A DNA stretch of 36,501 nucleotides from a virus. Position 1 is the stretch's first letter. Each line of letters starts with the position of its first letter. The translations under genes and the position numbers were made by a program. Below the pieces are notes generated by a model that was not told the DNA's origin, searched no databases, and saw nothing but the letters and a program-made list of their open reading frames with translations. The stretch covers positions 1-36,501 of IMG/VR virus record IMGVR_UViG_3300044678_002107; one strand, given 5' to 3'. Positions 1 to 36,501 of the stretch are shown here, piece by piece.

Positions 1-185
1 AGCCCGCCGCCGCCTGCCCGCGAGAGCCCGCCGCCGCCTGCCCGGCTTCTCCCGCCGCCGCCTGCCCGGCGTAGCCCGCCGCCGCCTGCCCGGCTTCTCC
101 CGCCGCCGCCTGCCCGGCTTCTCCCGCCGCCGCCTGCCCGCGAGAGCCCGCCGCCGCCTGCCCGCGAGAGCCCGCCGCCGCCTGC
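1..185. repeat. 24-bp coding tandem repeats, left contig end
   Basis: Seven full copies of a 24-bp unit run from the contig edge to about 185. Each has an invariant 18-base core (CCCGCCGCCGCCTGCCCG on the plus strand) and a variable hexamer. The hexamers read, left to right, CGAGAG, GCTTCT, GCGTAG, GCTTCT, GCTTCT, CGAGAG, CGAGAG. On the minus strand, in the frame of the gene they belong to, each unit encodes G-(E/Y/S)-(A/R)-G-Q-A-A-A. The array continues at the right end of the window. Confidence 0.95.
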
Positions 186-562
186 GCAAACATCGGGGTC
201 TGGGTATTGTCCGGCCGGTGCGCAGCGATGACGTTTGCGATCGTCGATTTGTCCCCCACCGCTGCGATGCGGCACCAGGGAAACTTCACCTTGCCGCCGA
301 GGTCGATCACGTCCGCTTCGATGACGGCCAGCGCCATCCACACGGCGTCGTCGGTCTTGGCCCTGCCACCCGCGGCACTCAGATCACCAAGGCCCCACAG
401 CCACCCGTGCAGGCCGTTGCCGCAGGACGCCGCCGGGCTCCAGTCGGGCGCCTCGACGATCGCGCCGACCTTCGTCGGCCAGATGAACGAGCCGTGCGAT
501 TCGCCGTTGGGTCCCACGCACTTCATGACGAGCACTTCGCCACGCTTGGTCAGCTTCTTCAT
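1..562 (-). CDS. Octapeptide-repeat protein, N-terminal part (crosses contig ends)
   Basis: This is the first 187 codons of a protein whose remainder lies at 36501-35807. It starts at ATG 562 after an AGGGGA ribosome site. Residues 1 to about 120 form a globular head (MKKLTKRGEVLVMK..., then HGSFIWP, ASCGNGLHGWLWG, GGKVKFPW and VGDKSTIANVIAAH). From my knowledge of phage families this resembles the N-terminal domain (DUF7666-like) of proteins that carry a long octapeptide array and a short conserved C-terminus. The repeats G-[EYS]-[ARC]-G-Q-A-A-A start at about residue 128, right after MFAQAAA, and probably form a beta-solenoid or glycine-rich rod. The molecular function of the family is not known to me. 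It is translated with the leftward early operon. The repeat count is uncertain, because short-read assemblies break or collapse such arrays. Confidence 0.85.
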   Translation of the reverse strand, partial: MKKLTKRGEVLVMKCVGPNGESHGSFIWPTKVGAIVEAPDWSPAASCGNGLHGWLWGLGDLSAAGGRAKTDDAVWMALAVIEADVIDLGGKVKFPWCRIAAVGDKSTIANVIAAHRPDNTQTPMFAQAAAGSRGQAAAGSRGQAAAGEAGQAAAGEAGQAAAGYAGQAAAGEAGQAAAGSRGQAAAG

Positions 563-1192: not shown

Positions 1193-1893
1193 GCCGCATC
1201 TCCGTCAAAGGGGTTGTCGTCGTCCACTGGCGGGGGCGGCGCGAGGTACGTCCGCAGGCCCGCCGCCCACTCGCCGCGGACCTTGCCCGCGAGGTACTTG
1301 GCCGTGCGCTCGTTCCACGTCTCGGGCGGGCCGGGGGACTTGCCCGTCTTGGCCTCGCAGAACTCAAGGAAGCCCACGAGGTCGCAGCCCATCTCGCGCA
1401 GCACGGCGCGCACGCTGGCGCGGTAGTCGTCGACGCCCGGGGCCGGCGCGTCGTCCTGCTGCACGGCGCGGGGCTGCGGTCGCTTGGGCTCGTCGCGCAG
1501 GACGTCGATGCGGTGCTCGACCTTGGACTTCTTGCTCGCGGCGAGGGTGATTTTCTTTGGCCCGTCAATGTGGCTCATTCCCGAGATGCGGATTCCGCCG
1601 ACCTCGACGCCGCCATACTTGACGGTCGGGTCGCGGTACAAACGCACCAGGCGCCCGGCCCACGCGGACGGGGCGGAACCCCAGAGCGCGGCCAGCACGC
1701 GCATCGTCGTCTTGCAGGGCTTCCACGGGCGGTGGCCGCCGTCGAGCTCGACCGTGACCGGCTGCTCCATGCCGCCCGTGATGCGCGCTGAGATGACGCG
1801 CACGGTCACGGGGCCGGCAATCAAGTCGTCGGCGTTGAGCTGGTCGCTCTTTGCGGCCAGAAGAGGGGTGATGTCGTCGTTGTCGTTGCTCAC
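1189..1893 (-). CDS. Conserved phage recombination-module protein
   Basis: A 234-residue protein. Residues about 25-115 match a pattern I know from phage proteins encoded beside recombination nucleases: a region ending in RPWKPCKTTMRVLAALWG, then W-x-G-R-x-V-x-L-Y-x-D and a V-x-G-I-R-I strand, which looks like a small beta-rich (possibly OB-like) fold. A low-complexity hinge (PQPRAVQQDDAPAPG) leads to a helical C-terminal domain and an acidic tail (PVDDDNPFDGDAA). Acidic tails are typical of single-stranded-DNA-binding proteins that recruit partners. A role as an accessory of the adjacent RecE-like protein is therefore plausible but inferred. Its end overlaps the next gene, and its start overlaps the nuclease stop by four bases. 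Confidence 0.8.
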   Translation of the reverse strand: MSNDNDDITPLLAAKSDQLNADDLIAGPVTVRVISARITGGMEQPVTVELDGGHRPWKPCKTTMRVLAALWGSAPSAWAGRLVRLYRDPTVKYGGVEVGGIRISGMSHIDGPKKITLAASKKSKVEHRIDVLRDEPKRPQPRAVQQDDAPAPGVDDYRASVRAVLREMGCDLVGFLEFCEAKTGKSPGPPETWNERTAKYLAGKVRGEWAAGLRTYLAPPPPVDDDNPFDGDAA

Positions 1894-2765
1894 GTTTCGT
1901 CTCCAGCGTCTTCAATGGTCATCTCGTCGGCGGGGTAGGCCCACGCCGGCAAATCAAAGTCGACCTCGCCCACGACCGGCCCCGGCCACACGCCCGACGC
2001 CTCGCACTCGGCGAGCGTCGTCATGGCCGCCATGTACTCCTGTCGCCCGCGCTCGAGGACATGCTCCGGGATGCGGTAGACCGCTACCGCGTGGGGCGCG
2101 GCGCTCTCGACCACGATTTCCACCATGAGGGGCAGGCGCCCCGTGATGGCCTGGAAACCGTCGCAGTAGAACGCCCACTGCCAGTGATAGGCCAGGTCGG
2201 CAGCATGCGCGGCGAACTTGCGGGGCCGCAGGTCGCGCGTGGTCTTGAGACCGACCACAACGTCGCAGCCGTCGATGGCGGTCAGCCAATCCACGCGCCC
2301 CTTGCAGGCCGTCCCCGTCTCCGCGTCGTGCCATGCCATGCTGACTTCGGCGTGGCCGTGGCGCAGGTACACCATGGCCTCGGGGCAGCCGCGAACGGCA
2401 GCGGCGATGGCGAGGGCGTCGGCCTCCTCGTCTTCGGTCAGCACGGGCAGCCCGCGGGCCTCCGCGTCGGCCTTGAACGATTCCCACTCTTTGCCCGCGC
2501 GCCGGCCTCCAGTCCACACGGCGAACGAGTCGGCGAAGTGCTCCGGCTCCAGAGTCGCACAGTGCGCTGCGGTTCCGAGCGCCATGGCCGCGCTCGTCGG
2601 CTTCGGGTTGTCCTTCGCGTGGCGGTAGTGCAGCGGGGATCGGTTAAACTCCTTAAGGCTCGACACGTTGACGCCGGCCGCGGCGCGGTATCGGGCAAAG
2701 TCGACGCCGGCCACGATGCGGCCGGCCTTGTTCGATTCGAGGACGGCAGGGTTGATGGCGTTCAT
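1890..2765 (-). CDS. RecE-like PD-(D/E)XK exonuclease homologue, catalytic Asp replaced
   Basis: This 291-residue protein has the layout of the exonuclease VIII/PDDEXK-12 (DUF3799) group. It opens with an SSLKEFNRSPLHYRHA start motif and GTAAHCATLEPE with His68. Glu140 follows (HAEVSM), then KGRVDW with Asp159, a D-V-V-V-G-L-K-T-T strand with Lys174, and QWAFY (Q196xxxY200). Active relatives of this family degrade duplex ends 5' to 3' for single-strand annealing. Here the acid expected in the D-x-K motif is Gly172, reachable by one base change (GAT to GGT), so the enzyme may be inactive or the base may be an error. It is coupled to the genes on both sides by four-base overlaps. No RecT/Erf annealase was recognised, unless the downstream 234-residue protein serves that role. 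Confidence 0.88.
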   Translation of the reverse strand: MNAINPAVLESNKAGRIVAGVDFARYRAAAGVNVSSLKEFNRSPLHYRHAKDNPKPTSAAMALGTAAHCATLEPEHFADSFAVWTGGRRAGKEWESFKADAEARGLPVLTEDEEADALAIAAAVRGCPEAMVYLRHGHAEVSMAWHDAETGTACKGRVDWLTAIDGCDVVVGLKTTRDLRPRKFAAHAADLAYHWQWAFYCDGFQAITGRLPLMVEIVVESAAPHAVAVYRIPEHVLERGRQEYMAAMTTLAECEASGVWPGPVVGEVDFDLPAWAYPADEMTIEDAGDET

Positions 2766-3703: not shown

Positions 3704-4603
3704 GTGTCGTATTGGCTGAAGCTCTATCAGGACACCCACGCCGACGCCCGATTGCGCAAGGCCCGCGCTCGCGCAATCTGGCCTTGGATTCTCTGCCGCT
3801 TGAAGGACGGGGACGGGTTCGCGACCGACGCAGACCTCGACCCGTGGCGCGCATCGGACGACCATGACGAGGTGTTTTCCGAAGCCGAGGCCGCAGGGAT
3901 GATTGAGCGGCTGAAGTCGGCCGGCCTGCTCGTGTCGACGGATTGCGGGTGGGCCTGCCCCGAGTGGGAGCGCCACGTCGGCGACCCTACGAACGCCGAC
4001 CGGCAGAAGCGGTTCAGGGATAGGAAGCGAGCGCAGGATCAATCGAAGGAAACAGTAACGCCGAGTAACGGTTACGAACCGTTACTAACGTTACGTAACG
4101 GGAGTAACGGTAGAGCAGAGCAGAGCAGAGCAGAGAAGAAAGACGGTGATGAAGTGGAGGTTACGCGCGTGTGTGCGGTTGAAACACCGGCGCCGACCGT
4201 GGCCGAGGCCACCCAGGACGAAGTGCAGACGAAAATCCAGAATCACCCGGCGCACGACGCAATCCTCCCGATTGCCCGCGCCGCGTTCTCCATCCTCGGC
4301 GTCTGCCCAGAGGTCTACACCCTCGAATCCTGGCTCCAGGCCGGCTACTCGCTGGCGCGAATCGAATACGGGTTGCGGCAGGCCAAGCAATCCGCGGCTG
4401 GCCAATGGATGCCCATGGGTAAGATTATCATCTCCGCGGGGCGATGGATGCAGCGGGCCGCCCCGGAAGAGTATCAGAAACGGCCCCAGCAGGCCGCAGG
4501 AGGCGCGAAAGCGGTGCAACCCATACCCACACCGCAGGAGCCGGCCAAGCAGTCCCTAACGGCCGAAGAGACGGCCGCGGCGTTTGCGGAGATTCTCGGA
4601 TGA
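3704..4603 (+). CDS. Replication initiator / replisome organiser-like protein
   Basis: A 299-residue protein starting at GTG 3704. The N-terminal domain (residues 1 to about 110: YWLKLYQDTHADARLRK, then a winged-helix-like region ending CPEWERHVGDPTNADRQKRFRDRKRA) resembles the DNA-binding end of phage replication organisers. A low-complexity linker (about 110-165) is encoded by the iteron cluster. The C-terminal helical domain (about 180-250, PEVYTLESWLQAGYSLARIEYGL) resembles helicase-loading or DnaD/DnaT-like segments. The product probably binds the origin inside its own gene and recruits the helicase encoded next, whose ATG overlaps its stop (ATGA). Family assignment rests on layout and context rather than a signature motif. 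Confidence 0.75.
   Translation: MSYWLKLYQDTHADARLRKARARAIWPWILCRLKDGDGFATDADLDPWRASDDHDEVFSEAEAAGMIERLKSAGLLVSTDCGWACPEWERHVGDPTNADRQKRFRDRKRAQDQSKETVTPSNGYEPLLTLRNGSNGRAEQSRAEKKDGDEVEVTRVCAVETPAPTVAEATQDEVQTKIQNHPAHDAILPIARAAFSILGVCPEVYTLESWLQAGYSLARIEYGLRQAKQSAAGQWMPMGKIIISAGRWMQRAAPEEYQKRPQQAAGGAKAVQPIPTPQEPAKQSLTAEETAAAFAEILG
4055..4138. repeat. Iteron cluster, candidate replication origin
   Basis: Within 55 bases there are four GTAACG hexamers (4055-4060, 4065-4070, 4095-4100, 4104-4109) and two on the other strand (CGTTAC at 4080-4085 and 4089-4094). They include a perfect 12-base palindrome CGTTACGTAACG (4089-4100) and an inverted repeat AACGGTT/AACCGTT with a 3-base spacer (4067-4083). 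Downstream, 4112-4138 is a purine-rich run of AGAGC pentamers. The set lies in the linker of the initiator gene, the arrangement known from lambda O and its origin. Confidence 0.65.
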
Positions 4604-5946
4604 AACTCAACAGGACTGAGCTAGCCGAGGTCTTGACCATCGCGTGCTGCCTTGTCGGCGGCACGGATGCCATGGACATTGCCTCGGACCATTGCAGCGC
4701 CGAGGACTTCGTGAACTCGCGGGCGGCATCGGCATTCCGCGCGATGTCGCAGCTAGTGGCCCGCGGCGACCCCATCGATATCGTAACCGTGGCCACGACC
4801 ATGGGCGGCGCAGCATGGAACCGCGAAACCGGGTCGGAGCGCATCGACTCTGACGCCCTTTCGTGGCTTGCGGAGCTTGAGGGCAACGCGCCGTTTGTGC
4901 GCGACGTCGGCCACCATGCGAAGCGGGTCCGGACCGCCGCGCGCCTCCGTGGCATTGAAGAGGCATGCCGCGCCGGGCTCGCCGCCTGCCAGTCTGCCAG
5001 CGACGACACCGACGCCGCGGCACAGGTCGCGGACGGCATCGTAGAGGGCCTGCTCGCGGTTGGCGACAAGGCGAGCGGAGCGACGTCCATTCGCATCTCG
5101 GGTGCCGTGAAACTCATGCTCGCCGACTTCAAGGCCCGGCAGACGACGCCGATTGAACGGCAGTACGTGCGGACCGGATTGAGCAAGCTCGACAACCTGG
5201 TCGACGGCTACCGGCCGGGGCACCTGTACCTGGTCGGCGGCGCCCCGGGGCACGGCAAAACCGGCTTTCTCACCTTCGCCGCGGTGCAAGGCGCCATCGC
5301 CGGGGCCGCAGTGCTCTACGCCTCGGCCGAGGTGCCCGCGGAGGCCATCGCGCAGCGTGTCGTGTGCAACGTCGCCCGCGTGGACGGCCGGAAGTTGGAA
5401 CGGCTCGACCTTGACCGCGACGAGACGACGCAGGTTGTCGGCAGTACGCATCGCATCGCCGAGTGGCCGCTCTCCATCCTCGACGCGCCTGCCTTGACCG
5501 TGGGCCTGCTTGACCGCGAGGTGCGCCGGCACGTCAAGCGCAACCCGGAGCGCATCGGCGTTCTGGTCGTGGACTACCTGCAGCTTGTCCGCGCCAGCGG
5601 GAAGCACGGCAGCCGAGAGCAGGAGGTCGCCGAGGTCGCGGACGGCCTGCTCGAACTCTCAAAGCGGCACCGCATCGTGGTCATCGCCGGGGCGCAGCTC
5701 AATCGTGCGGGCGGGCAGCGGTCGGACAAACGCCCCGTCAGTGCCGACCTCCGCGAGTCGAGCCGCGGGGAGCACAATGCGTCCGTCGTGCTGATGCTGT
5801 ACCGCCCGGGGATGAACGGCGAGGACGCCGCCGACCCGACGCACGCCGAAATCATCGTACGCAAGAACCGACTCGGGCCGCTCGGAACCGCGCTCTGCGT
5901 ATTCGACGCCGCCCGCAACACATGGAGGGACCGGGATGGATTCTGA
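4600..5946 (+). CDS. DnaB-type replicative helicase
   Basis: A 448-residue hexameric helicase homologue that would unwind the fork for phage replication. The N-terminal primase-interaction domain covers about residues 1-110. The RecA-like domain begins at about 190 with TGLSKLDNLVDGYRPGHLYLV; GGAPGHGKTG (213-222) is the Walker A loop. A Walker B strand VLVVDYLQLV lies near 330. Q-L-N-R is the switch region, and SSRGEHNASVVLML with KNRLGPLGT corresponds to the DNA-binding and arginine-finger motifs H3/H4. Length is close to bacterial DnaB. It starts at ATG 4600, overlapping the initiator stop by four bases. An upstream extension to 4444 is open but would run through the initiator gene. Confidence 0.93.
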   Translation: MKLNRTELAEVLTIACCLVGGTDAMDIASDHCSAEDFVNSRAASAFRAMSQLVARGDPIDIVTVATTMGGAAWNRETGSERIDSDALSWLAELEGNAPFVRDVGHHAKRVRTAARLRGIEEACRAGLAACQSASDDTDAAAQVADGIVEGLLAVGDKASGATSIRISGAVKLMLADFKARQTTPIERQYVRTGLSKLDNLVDGYRPGHLYLVGGAPGHGKTGFLTFAAVQGAIAGAAVLYASAEVPAEAIAQRVVCNVARVDGRKLERLDLDRDETTQVVGSTHRIAEWPLSILDAPALTVGLLDREVRRHVKRNPERIGVLVVDYLQLVRASGKHGSREQEVAEVADGLLELSKRHRIVVIAGAQLNRAGGQRSDKRPVSADLRESSRGEHNASVVLMLYRPGMNGEDAADPTHAEIIVRKNRLGPLGTALCVFDAARNTWRDRDGF

Positions 5947-34953: not shown

Positions 34954-35098
34954 GGTCTTGAATCTCCGGCAGCGCGCGACGAATCGCGGCGGCGACTTCG
35001 GCCGGCATCGGGCGCAGGCCGTTCAGTTGTAGGTGCAGGGTGGACGGAGCGAGCCCCAGGACCATCCGAACCGCTTCGTCTCGGCCAAGGGTCGTCAT
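34946..35098 (-). CDS. Minimal helix-turn-helix protein (50 residues)
   Basis: A small frame from ATG 35098 to TAA 34946. Product: MTTLGRDEAVRMVLGLAPS, then TLHLQLNGLRPMPAEVAAAI, then RRALPEIQDRE. The DEAVRMVLGLAPSTLHLQL stretch reads as an HTH (helix, turn, recognition helix) and RPMPAEVAAAIRRALPEI as the closing helices, like a stripped-down XRE protein. Its start overlaps the stop of the XF1762-type gene, and its end overlaps the next start. This supports a real gene. It would be a small repressor of the operon or of other promoters. Confidence 0.72.
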   Translation of the reverse strand: MTTLGRDEAVRMVLGLAPSTLHLQLNGLRPMPAEVAAAIRRALPEIQDRE

Positions 35099-35562
35099 TA
35101 CCCCGCCTCCCACTTCAGCTTCTCTTGTGTTGGATGCTTGTCCACTCGCGGGCGCTCAAGCCTTGACCATGAACCGCCGGCCGTCTCGCCAATAACCCGC
35201 CACCCGGCGGCCCGCAGCGAGATTCCCGGCTCGGTGGCAAGCGTGTAGGTCAGCAGCCGCCGCCACCCGAGAGCGCGGCACGCGCGCCACGCTGCGCCGT
35301 AGAGCATGGAGCAGGCGTTGGGCGTGCCGTCCGTCGCAACCCGCGTGACCTCGGCGGTCCAGCCGTCGTCAGACATCCGCGCCACGGGGCGGCCGACGAT
35401 GGCGACGCCATGGACCGTCTCTCCGAGTGCCACGGCAAGAGCGAACAACCCAGAGACGGGCGGAGGGTGGTGGCGATGGTGCGCGAGTACGAATGCCTTG
35501 GCGTCTTGAATCGAGCACGGAACGACCGTCAGCTTGCCGTCGTCCTTGGTCAGTGGTCCCAT
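35098..35562 (-). CDS. XF1762-family (GNAT-like) phage protein
   Basis: A 154-residue protein. I recognise the XF1762 pattern: LTVVPCSIQDAKAFVLAHHRHH, VSGLFALAVALG, VHGVAIVGRPVARMSDDG, then AEVTRVATDGTPNACSMLYG, AAWRACRALGWRRLLTYTLA, PGISLRAAGWRV and DKHPTQEKLKWEA. This family is widespread in phages and prophages and has an acetyltransferase-like fold by sequence pattern. The biological role is unresolved. The start MGPLTKDDGK at ATG 35562 overlaps the previous gene by 13 bases. Confidence 0.85.
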   Translation of the reverse strand: MGPLTKDDGKLTVVPCSIQDAKAFVLAHHRHHPPPVSGLFALAVALGETVHGVAIVGRPVARMSDDGWTAEVTRVATDGTPNACSMLYGAAWRACRALGWRRLLTYTLATEPGISLRAAGWRVIGETAGGSWSRLERPRVDKHPTQEKLKWEAG

Positions 35563-35807
35563 TCGTCGACCTCGGCTTTCAGTTCGCCGCCGTAGCCACC
35601 CGCGCCGATGACGGTTCCAACGCGCCCCTTCGCGCGCAACGTCAAGGGCATCGCGCACCGGAACCCAGTGGTCATCATCTGCCGCCCGGCCGTGTTGCGG
35701 ACGTCGGTCAGAATGACGTCGCGGCAGGCCCCGGCGATGCGCTCGACCACGGCGAAGAGCTCCACGCGGTTGCGGCGGGTGATGATTGCTCGGGTGCCGG
35801 GGGTCAT
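35550..35807 (-). CDS. Small hypothetical protein
   Basis: An 85-residue basic-then-acidic protein, MTPGTRAIITRRNRVELFAV..., with strands TLRAKGRVGTVIGAGGYG and an acidic end (ELKAEVDEWDH). Its ATG overlaps the stop of the repeat protein (ATGA) and its end overlaps the XF1762 gene by 13 bases. An accessory function is possible; no family recognised. Confidence 0.7.
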   Translation of the reverse strand: MTPGTRAIITRRNRVELFAVVERIAGACRDVILTDVRNTAGRQMMTTGFRCAMPLTLRAKGRVGTVIGAGGYGGELKAEVDEWDH

Positions 35808-36501
35808 CAGAGCTTTGCCCCGGTCGGCTTGATGGCCGCGTTGGTGGTCTTCGCGAGCGTGCCGGCCTGCGCCTCGTCGGCCTTGGCGGCGAGCGCCTCA
35901 CGCGCGGCCCTGCGTTTGTCGAACAGCGCCCACGCGGCGGTCCACTGCTTGACCCGCGCGTCGTCATCCGTGACTCGGCGCAACCCATCGGCGCTCCCCT
36001 CGTACCACACTCCAGCCTCGATACCGGCGCGTCCGACTTGGCCGGCCGAGTAGCTGAAGTCGCTGCGCGTCGGGCCCGTCAAGTACATGGCCACCAATAC
36101 GGCGTTGGCGCCGCCCTTGACCAGACCTCCGATTCCGCACGTAGCCAAGCCATCGGCATCGACCGCCGCCTGCCCGGCTTCTCCCGCCGCCGCCTGCCCG
36201 GCGTAGCCCGCCGCCGCCTGCCCGCGAGAGCCCGCCGCCGCCTGCCCGCAAGAGCCCGCCGCCGCCTGCCCGCGAGAGCCCGCCGCCGCCTGCCCGGCTT
36301 CTCCCGCCGCCGCCTGCCCGGCGTAGCCCGCCGCCGCCTGCCCGGCTTCTCCCGCCGCCGCCTGCCCGGCTTCTCCCGCCGCCGCCTGCCCGGCGTAGCC
36401 CGCCGCCGCCTGCCCGCAAGAGCCCGCCGCCGCCTGCCCGGCGTAGCCCGCCGCCGCCTGCCCGGCTTCTCCCGCCGCCGCCTGCCCGGCGTAGCCCGCC
36501 G
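35807..36501 (-). CDS. Octapeptide-repeat protein, C-terminal part (crosses contig ends)
   Basis: This is the continuation of the gene that starts at 562. Read from the right contig edge, 14 octapeptide units (variable pairs YA, EA, YA, SC, YA, EA, EA, YA, EA, SR, SC, SR, YA, EA) lead to a conserved closing segment VDADGLATCGIGGLVKGGAN, then AVLVAMYLTG, and a helical C-terminus (VKQWTAAWALFDKRRAAREA). Closing segments of this kind (GLAT..G...KG.A.A..V) follow the arrays of related phage proteins. The frame is preserved across the contig ends with or without the 9-base overlap; the overlap also restores the repeat register. Stop TGA at 35807 overlaps the next start. Confidence 0.85.
   Translation of the reverse strand, partial: AGYAGQAAAGEAGQAAAGYAGQAAAGSCGQAAAGYAGQAAAGEAGQAAAGEAGQAAAGYAGQAAAGEAGQAAAGSRGQAAAGSCGQAAAGSRGQAAAGYAGQAAAGEAGQAAVDADGLATCGIGGLVKGGANAVLVAMYLTGPTRSDFSYSAGQVGRAGIEAGVWYEGSADGLRRVTDDDARVKQWTAAWALFDKRRAAREALAAKADEAQAGTLAKTTNAAIKPTGAKL
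36163..36501. repeat. 24-bp coding tandem repeats, right contig end
   Basis: Fourteen copies of the same 24-bp unit as at the left end, plus partial flanks. Hexamers left to right: GCTTCT, GCGTAG, CGAGAG, CAAGAG, CGAGAG, GCTTCT, GCGTAG, GCTTCT, GCTTCT, GCGTAG, CAAGAG, GCGTAG, GCTTCT, GCGTAG. The 18-base core is invariant in all internal copies; the copy nearest the gene C-terminus has one changed base (GACCGCCGCC). Terminal bases AGCCCGCCG equal the first nine bases of the window. Confidence 0.95.

What the first reader, a model, noticed from the sequence alone, without database searches (positions are those of the whole stretch)
1..185. Variable-cassette octapeptide array with invariant 18-base core spans the contig ends
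Seen: about 21 repeats (7 left, 14 right) share an identical 18-base core, while the other six bases come in only four versions (coding EA, YA, SR, SC). Synonymous drift is absent in the core, so the array is kept uniform by recent expansion or gene conversion, yet its cassette order is irregular. Known: arrays of this layout occur between a conserved head and tail domain in other phage proteins. Inferred: the length and cassette order probably change fast between phages or populations, and may alter a surface rod.
Basis: partly seen in the sequence, partly recalled or inferred. Interest (0 to 1): 0.8.

Follow-up and report, generated by a model that had tools for sequence, protein, structure and literature searches.

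The report
Shuffling octapeptide-repeat early phage protein
The two ends of this phage genome both lie inside one gene for a rod-shaped repeat protein whose eight-residue units are constantly reshuffled by recombination; it is a member of the family that includes the long-unexplained 'variable region 2' gene of Bordetella phage BPP-1, and its function is still unknown.

Summary
The array is real: 21 visible 24-bp units, minus strand, split between the contig ends. The invariant core is 17 bases, not 18; the next base (GGA/GGC) travels with the cassette. The gene encodes a DUF7666-like head, an octapeptide beta-solenoid and a small tail. It is homologous to Bbp36 of Bordetella phage BPP-1 (heads 40% identical), whose array was annotated 'VR2' by its depositors and described as non-essential, isolate-variable and of unknown role. 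In about 60 relatives each array has a uniform core plus a few dipeptide cassettes. None of 763 same-dipeptide unit pairs differs synonymously. Core third positions differ at 2% within arrays and 51% between. BPP-1 and BIP-1 differ at about 5 other places in 42 kb, outside their known tropism region, yet carry different arrays (14 versus 20 units). Core variants near a cassette stay linked to it; distant ones are scrambled. This points to homologous recombination plus selection for cassette diversity, not slippage. Contigs of relatives also break in the array (23 of 58), seven with the tail half at the opposite end, so the window's ends very probably join. Identified neighbour genes are early ones, so a virion surface rod is unlikely. 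The biochemical role remains inferred.

The parts
185..562 (-). N-terminal head (residues 1-126): DUF7666-like domain with CGNGLHGW motif; ADP-ribosyltransferase-like / RIIB-C-like predicted fold
   Evidence: Pfam PF24703 E=1.4e-4, below its cutoff; phrog_18079 E=3e-31; 40% identity to Bbp36 head, E 9e-25; AF2 model
1..184 (-). Octapeptide array, N-terminal part: 7 units SR SR EA EA YA EA SR, running off the contig end
   Evidence: beta-strand every 8 residues in AF2 model
36163..36501 (-). Octapeptide array, C-terminal part: 14 units YA EA YA SC YA EA EA YA EA SR SC SR YA EA, starting at the other contig end
35807..36162 (-). C-terminal tail/cap of the same protein; its first half matches the family tail, followed by a charged extension
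   Evidence: in frame; hhalign to 19 family tails E=0.001, probability 21%
1..9 (.). 9-base sequence AGCCCGCCG shared with 36493-36501; merging it restores regular 24-bp spacing
1890..2765 (-). Upstream gene on the same strand: exonuclease VIII-like
   Evidence: phrog_412 E=7.8e-73
35098..35562 (-). Downstream gene on the same strand: Mom-like DNA modification protein
   Evidence: phrog_1384 E=1.5e-38
4444..5946 (+). DnaB-like replicative helicase (early region)
   Evidence: phrog_19 E=6.3e-74

Best explanation
This is a Bbp36/VR2-type gene, split only because the assembly of a circular or circularly permuted phage genome broke in the repeat. It encodes an early, probably intracellular accessory protein: a DUF7666 head (RIIB-C-like, ADP-ribosyltransferase-like predicted fold), a beta-solenoid rod in which each octapeptide contributes one strand (QAAA) and one turn (G-x-x-G), and a small C-terminal cap. 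Shown by sequence: in the family, units change number and order on a time scale on which the rest of the genome barely changes; cores are homogenised within each phage; cassettes move as intact blocks; variable residues fall in the turns of the predicted model. Inferred mechanism of variation: homologous or annealing recombination at the 17-19-bp cores, within an array and between co-infecting relatives, probably helped by the exonuclease/annealing genes often encoded nearby, combined with selection that keeps several cassettes. Inferred function (about 0.35 likely): the ladder of turn dipeptides is a variable contact surface in phage-host or phage-phage conflict, such as counter-defence, decoy or exclusion, and the head docks it or acts as effector. 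The confidence given is for identity plus mode of variation, not for the function.
For: Homology: heads 40% identical to Bbp36, E 9e-25; same head/array/tail layout in about 60 relatives. Rapid turnover: BPP-1 and BIP-1 differ at about 5 places in 42 kb outside VR1 but carry 14 versus 20 units in different order with an extra cassette; BMP-1 18 units plus a 3-unit off-register insertion; vB_BbrP_003 7 units; P. aeruginosa D14O versus plasmid 4 versus 15 units; L114/L115 13 versus 14 units at 99.6% identity. Homogenisation and selection: cassette diversity 0.289 per site, core third positions 0.022 within arrays versus 0.51 between arrays, 0 of 763 same-dipeptide pairs synonymous-different; the same dipeptides recur with different codons (YR as TACAGA, TATCGC, TACCGC). 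Recombination: distal core variants scrambled against cassettes (L006, L013, L138, L124) while adjacent ones stay linked (window EA, L100 YS, L140 DY); no lag-1 order correlation, against a strong one expected from single-unit slippage. Early location: cI, exonuclease, RecT, primase, methyltransferase and RusA neighbours. Solenoid: pLDDT 88.7 and 94.7 with 8-residue strand periodicity. Circular join: seven relatives carry the tail half at the opposite contig end in matching orientation; contig ends in the array 23 of 58 versus 1.7 expected.
Against: No function has been measured for any member that I could find; Bbp36 is reported non-essential for phage growth (cited in PMC2884959). Fold matches of the head to ADP-ribosyltransferases are weak (Z 3.4-5.2, below 8). 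The window's tail matches the family tail only marginally. The diversity contrast could also arise if the core, but not the cassette, is homogenised, without selection on cassettes. Near-identical relatives of the window itself were not available, so turnover is shown in the family, not in this phage.
Confidence: 0.65

Rival explanations
1. Neutral length-variable spacer: only the rod length and solenoid core matter, and cassette positions are simply unconstrained turn residues.
For: Bbp36 is reported non-essential; cassette order looks random; variable residues lie in turns.
Against: Unconstrained sites should vary no more than synonymous sites, yet cassette diversity is about 13 times core third-position diversity, and those third positions are free to change between arrays (0.51). 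The dipeptide menu is narrow and recurrent (D/Y/N/E then S/R/Y/G) with differing codons.
Confidence: 0.25
2. Virion surface rod, such as a fibre or decoration.
For: A predicted beta-solenoid rod between two domains.
Against: Every identified neighbouring gene is early: repressor, exonuclease, RecT, primase or methyltransferase. In BPP-1 the virion genes form a separate cluster and VR2 is not tied to tropism.
Confidence: 0.06
3. Ice-nucleation or ice-binding protein, as phage Mica gp52 is annotated.
For: Octapeptide beta-solenoid with TxT strands in many relatives; Mica annotation rests on a SwissProt match E 4e-10.
Against: The window's strands are QAAA and the nearest relatives' SAAA, with no TxT; TxT and SLT threonines are needed for full ice nucleation activity (PMC9418140). 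No Pfam ice-nucleation match; arrays can be as short as 2-4 units.
Confidence: 0.03
4. Assembly or sequencing artefact: the repeats at the two ends are collapsed or chimeric and the array has no biology.
For: Both contig ends fall in the array and share only 9 bases; the true unit number is not known.
Against: Both halves are in frame with conserved domains; the same layout occurs in isolate phages, a complete plasmid and a complete chromosome.
Confidence: 0.04
5. The array is diversified by a diversity-generating retroelement or other targeted mutator acting on the cassettes.
For: Variation is confined to 6-7 bases per unit; BPP-1 carries a DGR for another gene.
Against: No reverse transcriptase and no template copy of the core in the window; cassette changes are not adenine-specific; same-type cassettes never differ.
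Confidence: 0.03

Closest known systems
Variable region 2 (VR2) of gene bbp36, Bordetella phages BPP-1/BMP-1/BIP-1 (described as 24-bp element = 19-bp repeat + one of three 5-bp spacers, 9-20 copies by isolate)
   Same: Homologous head (40% identity), 24-bp octapeptide units with uniform core and few cassettes, tail domain, early location after cI and before an exonuclease
   Different: Core is QAAA instead of TATA; cassettes EA/YA/SR/SC instead of YR/ES/NY; longer C-terminal extension; no reverse transcriptase found in this genome
Mycobacteriophage Tweety gp54 tetrapeptide array (AAxx)
   Same: Phage gene with an Ala-rich repeat array of variable dipeptides, length-variable between relatives, proposed to be under selection for variation
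   Different: Head not detectably related; tetrapeptide period
Burkholderia phage Mica gp52 'ice nucleation protein'
   Same: Same family: head, octapeptide array, tail
   Different: TATA core; short array; annotation rests on repeat similarity only
Bacterial ice nucleation proteins (InaZ/PbINP)
   Same: Octapeptide-based beta-solenoid
   Different: 16-residue coils with TxT/SLT motifs and other terminal domains; none of these in the window protein
T4-type RIIB C-terminal domain
   Same: Predicted fold of the head and colinear C-x-x-GLH ... V-x-V-x-P-x-D-V motif
   Different: RIIB has no octapeptide array and carries an N-terminal HTH-like region

Membership tests
Bbp36/VR2-type phage repeat proteins (phrog_18079) | Homologous DUF7666-like head | tested here: met
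   BLASTP to Bbp36 head 40%, E 9e-25; phrog_18079 E 1.4e-52 for whole protein
Bbp36/VR2-type phage repeat proteins (phrog_18079) | 24-bp tandem units with uniform core and a small set of cassettes | tested here: met
   17-bp core, four cassettes, 21 units
Bbp36/VR2-type phage repeat proteins (phrog_18079) | Conserved tail after the array | tested here: inconclusive
   hhalign E 0.001 but probability only 21%
Bbp36/VR2-type phage repeat proteins (phrog_18079) | Array differs between close isolates | not tested
   No near-identical relative of this phage found; shown for other members
DUF7666 (PF24703) | Pfam gathering score 27 bits | tested here: not met
   22.7 bits for the window head; relatives L126, L099 and BPP-1 Bbp36 exceed it
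Ice nucleation proteins | TxT water-organising motif in the strands | tested here: not met
   Strands are QAAA in all units
Ice nucleation proteins | Match to Pfam ice-nucleation repeat | tested here: not met
   Not among Pfam matches up to E=1
ADP-ribosyltransferase fold | Structural match to solved ART-fold proteins | tested here: inconclusive
   Most top rows are ART-fold (TreTu, Arr, PARP15, IcmQ) but Z 3.4-5.2
ADP-ribosyltransferase fold | NAD-dependent transferase activity | not testable with these tools
   needs biochemistry
Diversity-generating retroelement target | Reverse transcriptase and template repeat in the genome | tested here: not met

The most novel reading that the evidence does not exclude
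The array is a readable, selected code: a RIIB/ART-like early effector carries a ladder of variable diresidues, comparable in logic only to TAL-effector repeat-variable diresidues or PRDM9 finger arrays. Phages rewrite it by recombination between cores to keep ahead of a co-evolving partner, such as a host defence protein or a competing prophage.
Probability: 0.2. Interest if true: 0.85.

Novelty: new member of a known kind. Interest (0 to 1): 0.5.

Why it matters
It connects an array noted in one Bordetella phage group in 2004 to at least 60 phages and prophages of Proteobacteria and Bacteroidota, and gives it testable rules: uniform core, small cassette menu, shuffling by recombination, cassette diversity far above synonymous diversity. 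It also explains why probably complete phage genomes appear as linear contigs cut in this gene, and links the head domain to the C-terminal domain of RIIB, a protein whose molecular role has been open for decades.

Tried and rejected
Searching the core 17-mer in IMG/VR gave only isolated, mostly single copies, no second array like this one. Searching the window's tail alone in viral contigs found no relative. The near-DNA phage search of the first 25 kb was empty. Foldseek against PDB with the window model gave no match under E 0.001; sequence profiles against PDB gave nothing. Odd/even specialisation of units, as expected if the two solenoid edges differ, was not significant (p=0.08). Single-unit slippage as the main process was rejected by lag statistics; the simulation is simple and only a guide. 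A direct comparison of the head with T4 RIIB alone was uninformative; only the 10-sequence RIIB alignment gave a colinear match. Tweety gp54 was tested as a homologue and rejected. L087/L088, the nearest relatives, did not show a tail at the opposite contig end. Searching Acinetobacter species for more relatives failed for want of a genome handle.

Full report
What is there. The window is a 36,501-bp IMG/VR virus record classed as linear. A gene on the minus strand starts at 562, runs off the left end, and its second part enters at the right end and stops at 35807. Between the two domains lie 24-bp units: 7 on the left and 14 on the right. The 17-base core GGGCAGGCGGCGGCGGG is found only in the array (20 exact copies plus one edge copy; 0.16 expected by chance). 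Four cassettes occur: EA 8, YA 6, SR 5, SC 2. The ends share 9 bases; merging them makes all spacings 24 bp and gives 415 residues. The left piece ends within a stretch of at least 140 bp that recurs in the right piece, a place where short-read assembly fails, so 21 units is probably a minimum.

Do the ends join? Among 58 array-bearing relatives in IMG/VR, 23 contigs end inside the array, against 1.7 expected if ends fell at random. Seven of those 23 carry the tail half within about 500 bp of the opposite contig end, always in the orientation that would close the gene. The window shows the same arrangement, so a circular or circularly permuted genome cut in the array is by far the simplest reading.

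What family is it? The head (residues 1-126) matches DUF7666 weakly (22.7 bits, cutoff 27), and the whole protein matches phrog_18079 at 1.4e-52, function unknown. Relatives with head, array and tail were found in about 60 viral contigs and 8 bacterial genomes, in Burkholderia phage Mica, Pseudomonas phage vB_PaeS-D14O, a P. aeruginosa plasmid, and Bordetella phages. The important one is Bbp36 of Bordetella phage BPP-1. Its head is 40% identical to the window head (E 9e-25), and the depositors annotated its array as 'variable region 2; VR2' in BPP-1, BMP-1 and BIP-1. A later paper summarises Liu et al. 2004: a 24-bp element made of a 19-bp repeat and one of three 5-bp spacers, 9-20 copies depending on isolate, role unknown, not tied to tropism, gene not essential (PMC2884959). 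The original paper is not held in the library.

How the array evolves. Across 50 arrays and 479 interior units (the two window halves and a few close relatives counted apart), diversity per site is 0.289 in the cassette, 0.0057 at core first and second positions and 0.022 at core third positions. Between arrays the third positions differ at 0.51. None of 763 pairs of units with the same dipeptide differ synonymously. Cores are therefore homogenised within each phage while cassettes are kept diverse. Unconstrained residues should not be more variable than synonymous sites, so selection for several cassettes is the simplest reading, although homogenisation confined to the core is not excluded. 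Recurrent dipeptides (DS, YR, YS, DY, DR, NY, ES) appear with different codons in different phages.

Recombination rather than slippage. Where a core carries a synonymous variant next to the cassette, it stays linked to it (window EA, L100 YS; in L140 DY an adjacent non-synonymous base does the same). Variants further away are scrambled with respect to cassettes (L006, L013, L138, L124). Cassette order shows no lag-1 excess (z -0.4), whereas simulated single-unit duplication gives z about 22 and two-unit blocks about 6; longer blocks come closer. L110 contains an 8-unit block duplication. Near-identical phages show the speed: L114 and L115 are 99.6% identical over 6.3 kb with 13 and 14 units; L119 and L121 share flanks at 99.3% but not array order; L089 and L092 have different arrays at 98.1%. 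The P. aeruginosa pair D14O and plasmid have 4 and 15 units with closely similar heads and tails. BPP-1 and BIP-1 differ at about 5 sites in 42 kb outside the DGR region VR1, yet have 14 and 20 units in different order, and BIP-1 has seven NY cassettes that BPP-1 lacks. BMP-1 has four more YR units and a three-unit insertion that breaks the register. vB_BbrP_003 has 7 units. All use the same core, 59 of 59 parsed units.

Structure and location. AlphaFold2 models of the window's N-terminal part (pLDDT 88.7) and of full-length relative L126 (pLDDT 94.7) show a strand every eight residues. In the window the strand is QAAA and the variable dipeptide lies in the G-x-x-G turn. The head is alpha/beta; most of its top solved-structure matches are ADP-ribosyltransferase-fold proteins, but with low Z (3.4-5.2). 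Among predicted viral structures it matches DUF7666 proteins and many RIIB proteins, and a profile comparison with ten RIIB sequences is colinear over the C-x-x-GLH region (E 4e-4). In every context examined the identified neighbours are early genes: cI, exonuclease, RecT, primase, methyltransferase, RusA. In the window they are an exonuclease VIII-like gene upstream and a Mom-like gene downstream. This argues against a virion surface rod.

Most likely working. Shown: early gene context, predicted solenoid, uniform cores, intact cassettes, very fast turnover in the family. Inferred: annealing recombination at the cores, with recombinases the phages often encode nearby, shuffles units within and between phages; selection maintains cassette diversity; the turn ladder contacts something that itself varies. 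A conflict role is my best guess at about 0.35. A neutral spacer is the main rival. Ice nucleation, the Mica annotation, is unlikely because the window and its nearest relatives lack the TxT motif that activity needs.

Novelty. The kind of array was already described in Bordetella phages. The window is a new member with a different core and cassette set. The family-wide rules, the assembly signature and the head's link to RIIB are the additions; I found no paper in the held library stating them (no paper on DUF7666), but that library is incomplete.

Noticed in passing
window 185-562 (head domain); L152 466-1404: The DUF7666 head resembles the C-terminal domain of T4-type RIIB in predicted fold (many RIIB matches, probability 1.00) and in a colinear C-x-x-GLH ... 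V-x-V-x-P-x-D-V motif (hhalign E 4e-4).
   Followed up: partly
window 185-562; models mb1bf045ecb2a and md94bd4ad4c38: Most top solved-structure matches of the head are ADP-ribosyltransferase-fold proteins (TreTu, Arr, PARP15, Tpt1, IcmQ), though with low Z.
   Followed up: partly
L141 8986-9645; L142 8992-9651: Family members are annotated 'ice nucleation protein' (phage Mica) and 'flagellar hook-length control protein fliK' (D14O); both look like misannotation driven by the repeats.
   Followed up: yes
L005, L008, L010, L014, L087-L089, L092, L093, L095-L098, L103, L107, L109, L111, L113, L117, L119, L122, L128, L132: 23 of 58 IMG/VR contigs of this family end inside the array; 7 of them have the tail half at the opposite end, so records classed as linear are probably complete circular or permuted genomes.
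   Followed up: yes
L005, L009, L011-L014, L119, L121, L123, L129, L139: A sister group has nine-residue units (27 bp, mostly G-x-x-GHASAT) with the same head and the same rule of uniform core plus few cassettes.
   Followed up: partly
L169 2897-3394 (BMP-1 VR2): BMP-1 carries a three-unit insertion at the array's 3' end that breaks the register (core-core junction and cassette joined directly to the tail) but keeps the frame.
   Followed up: partly
BFVD matches: Giant-virus ankyrin-repeat proteins and a phage pentapeptide protein match the window model; the same head may be fused to different repeat types.
   Followed up: no
window 35098-35562: Mom-like DNA modification gene in the same-strand cluster next to the array gene.
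   Followed up: no
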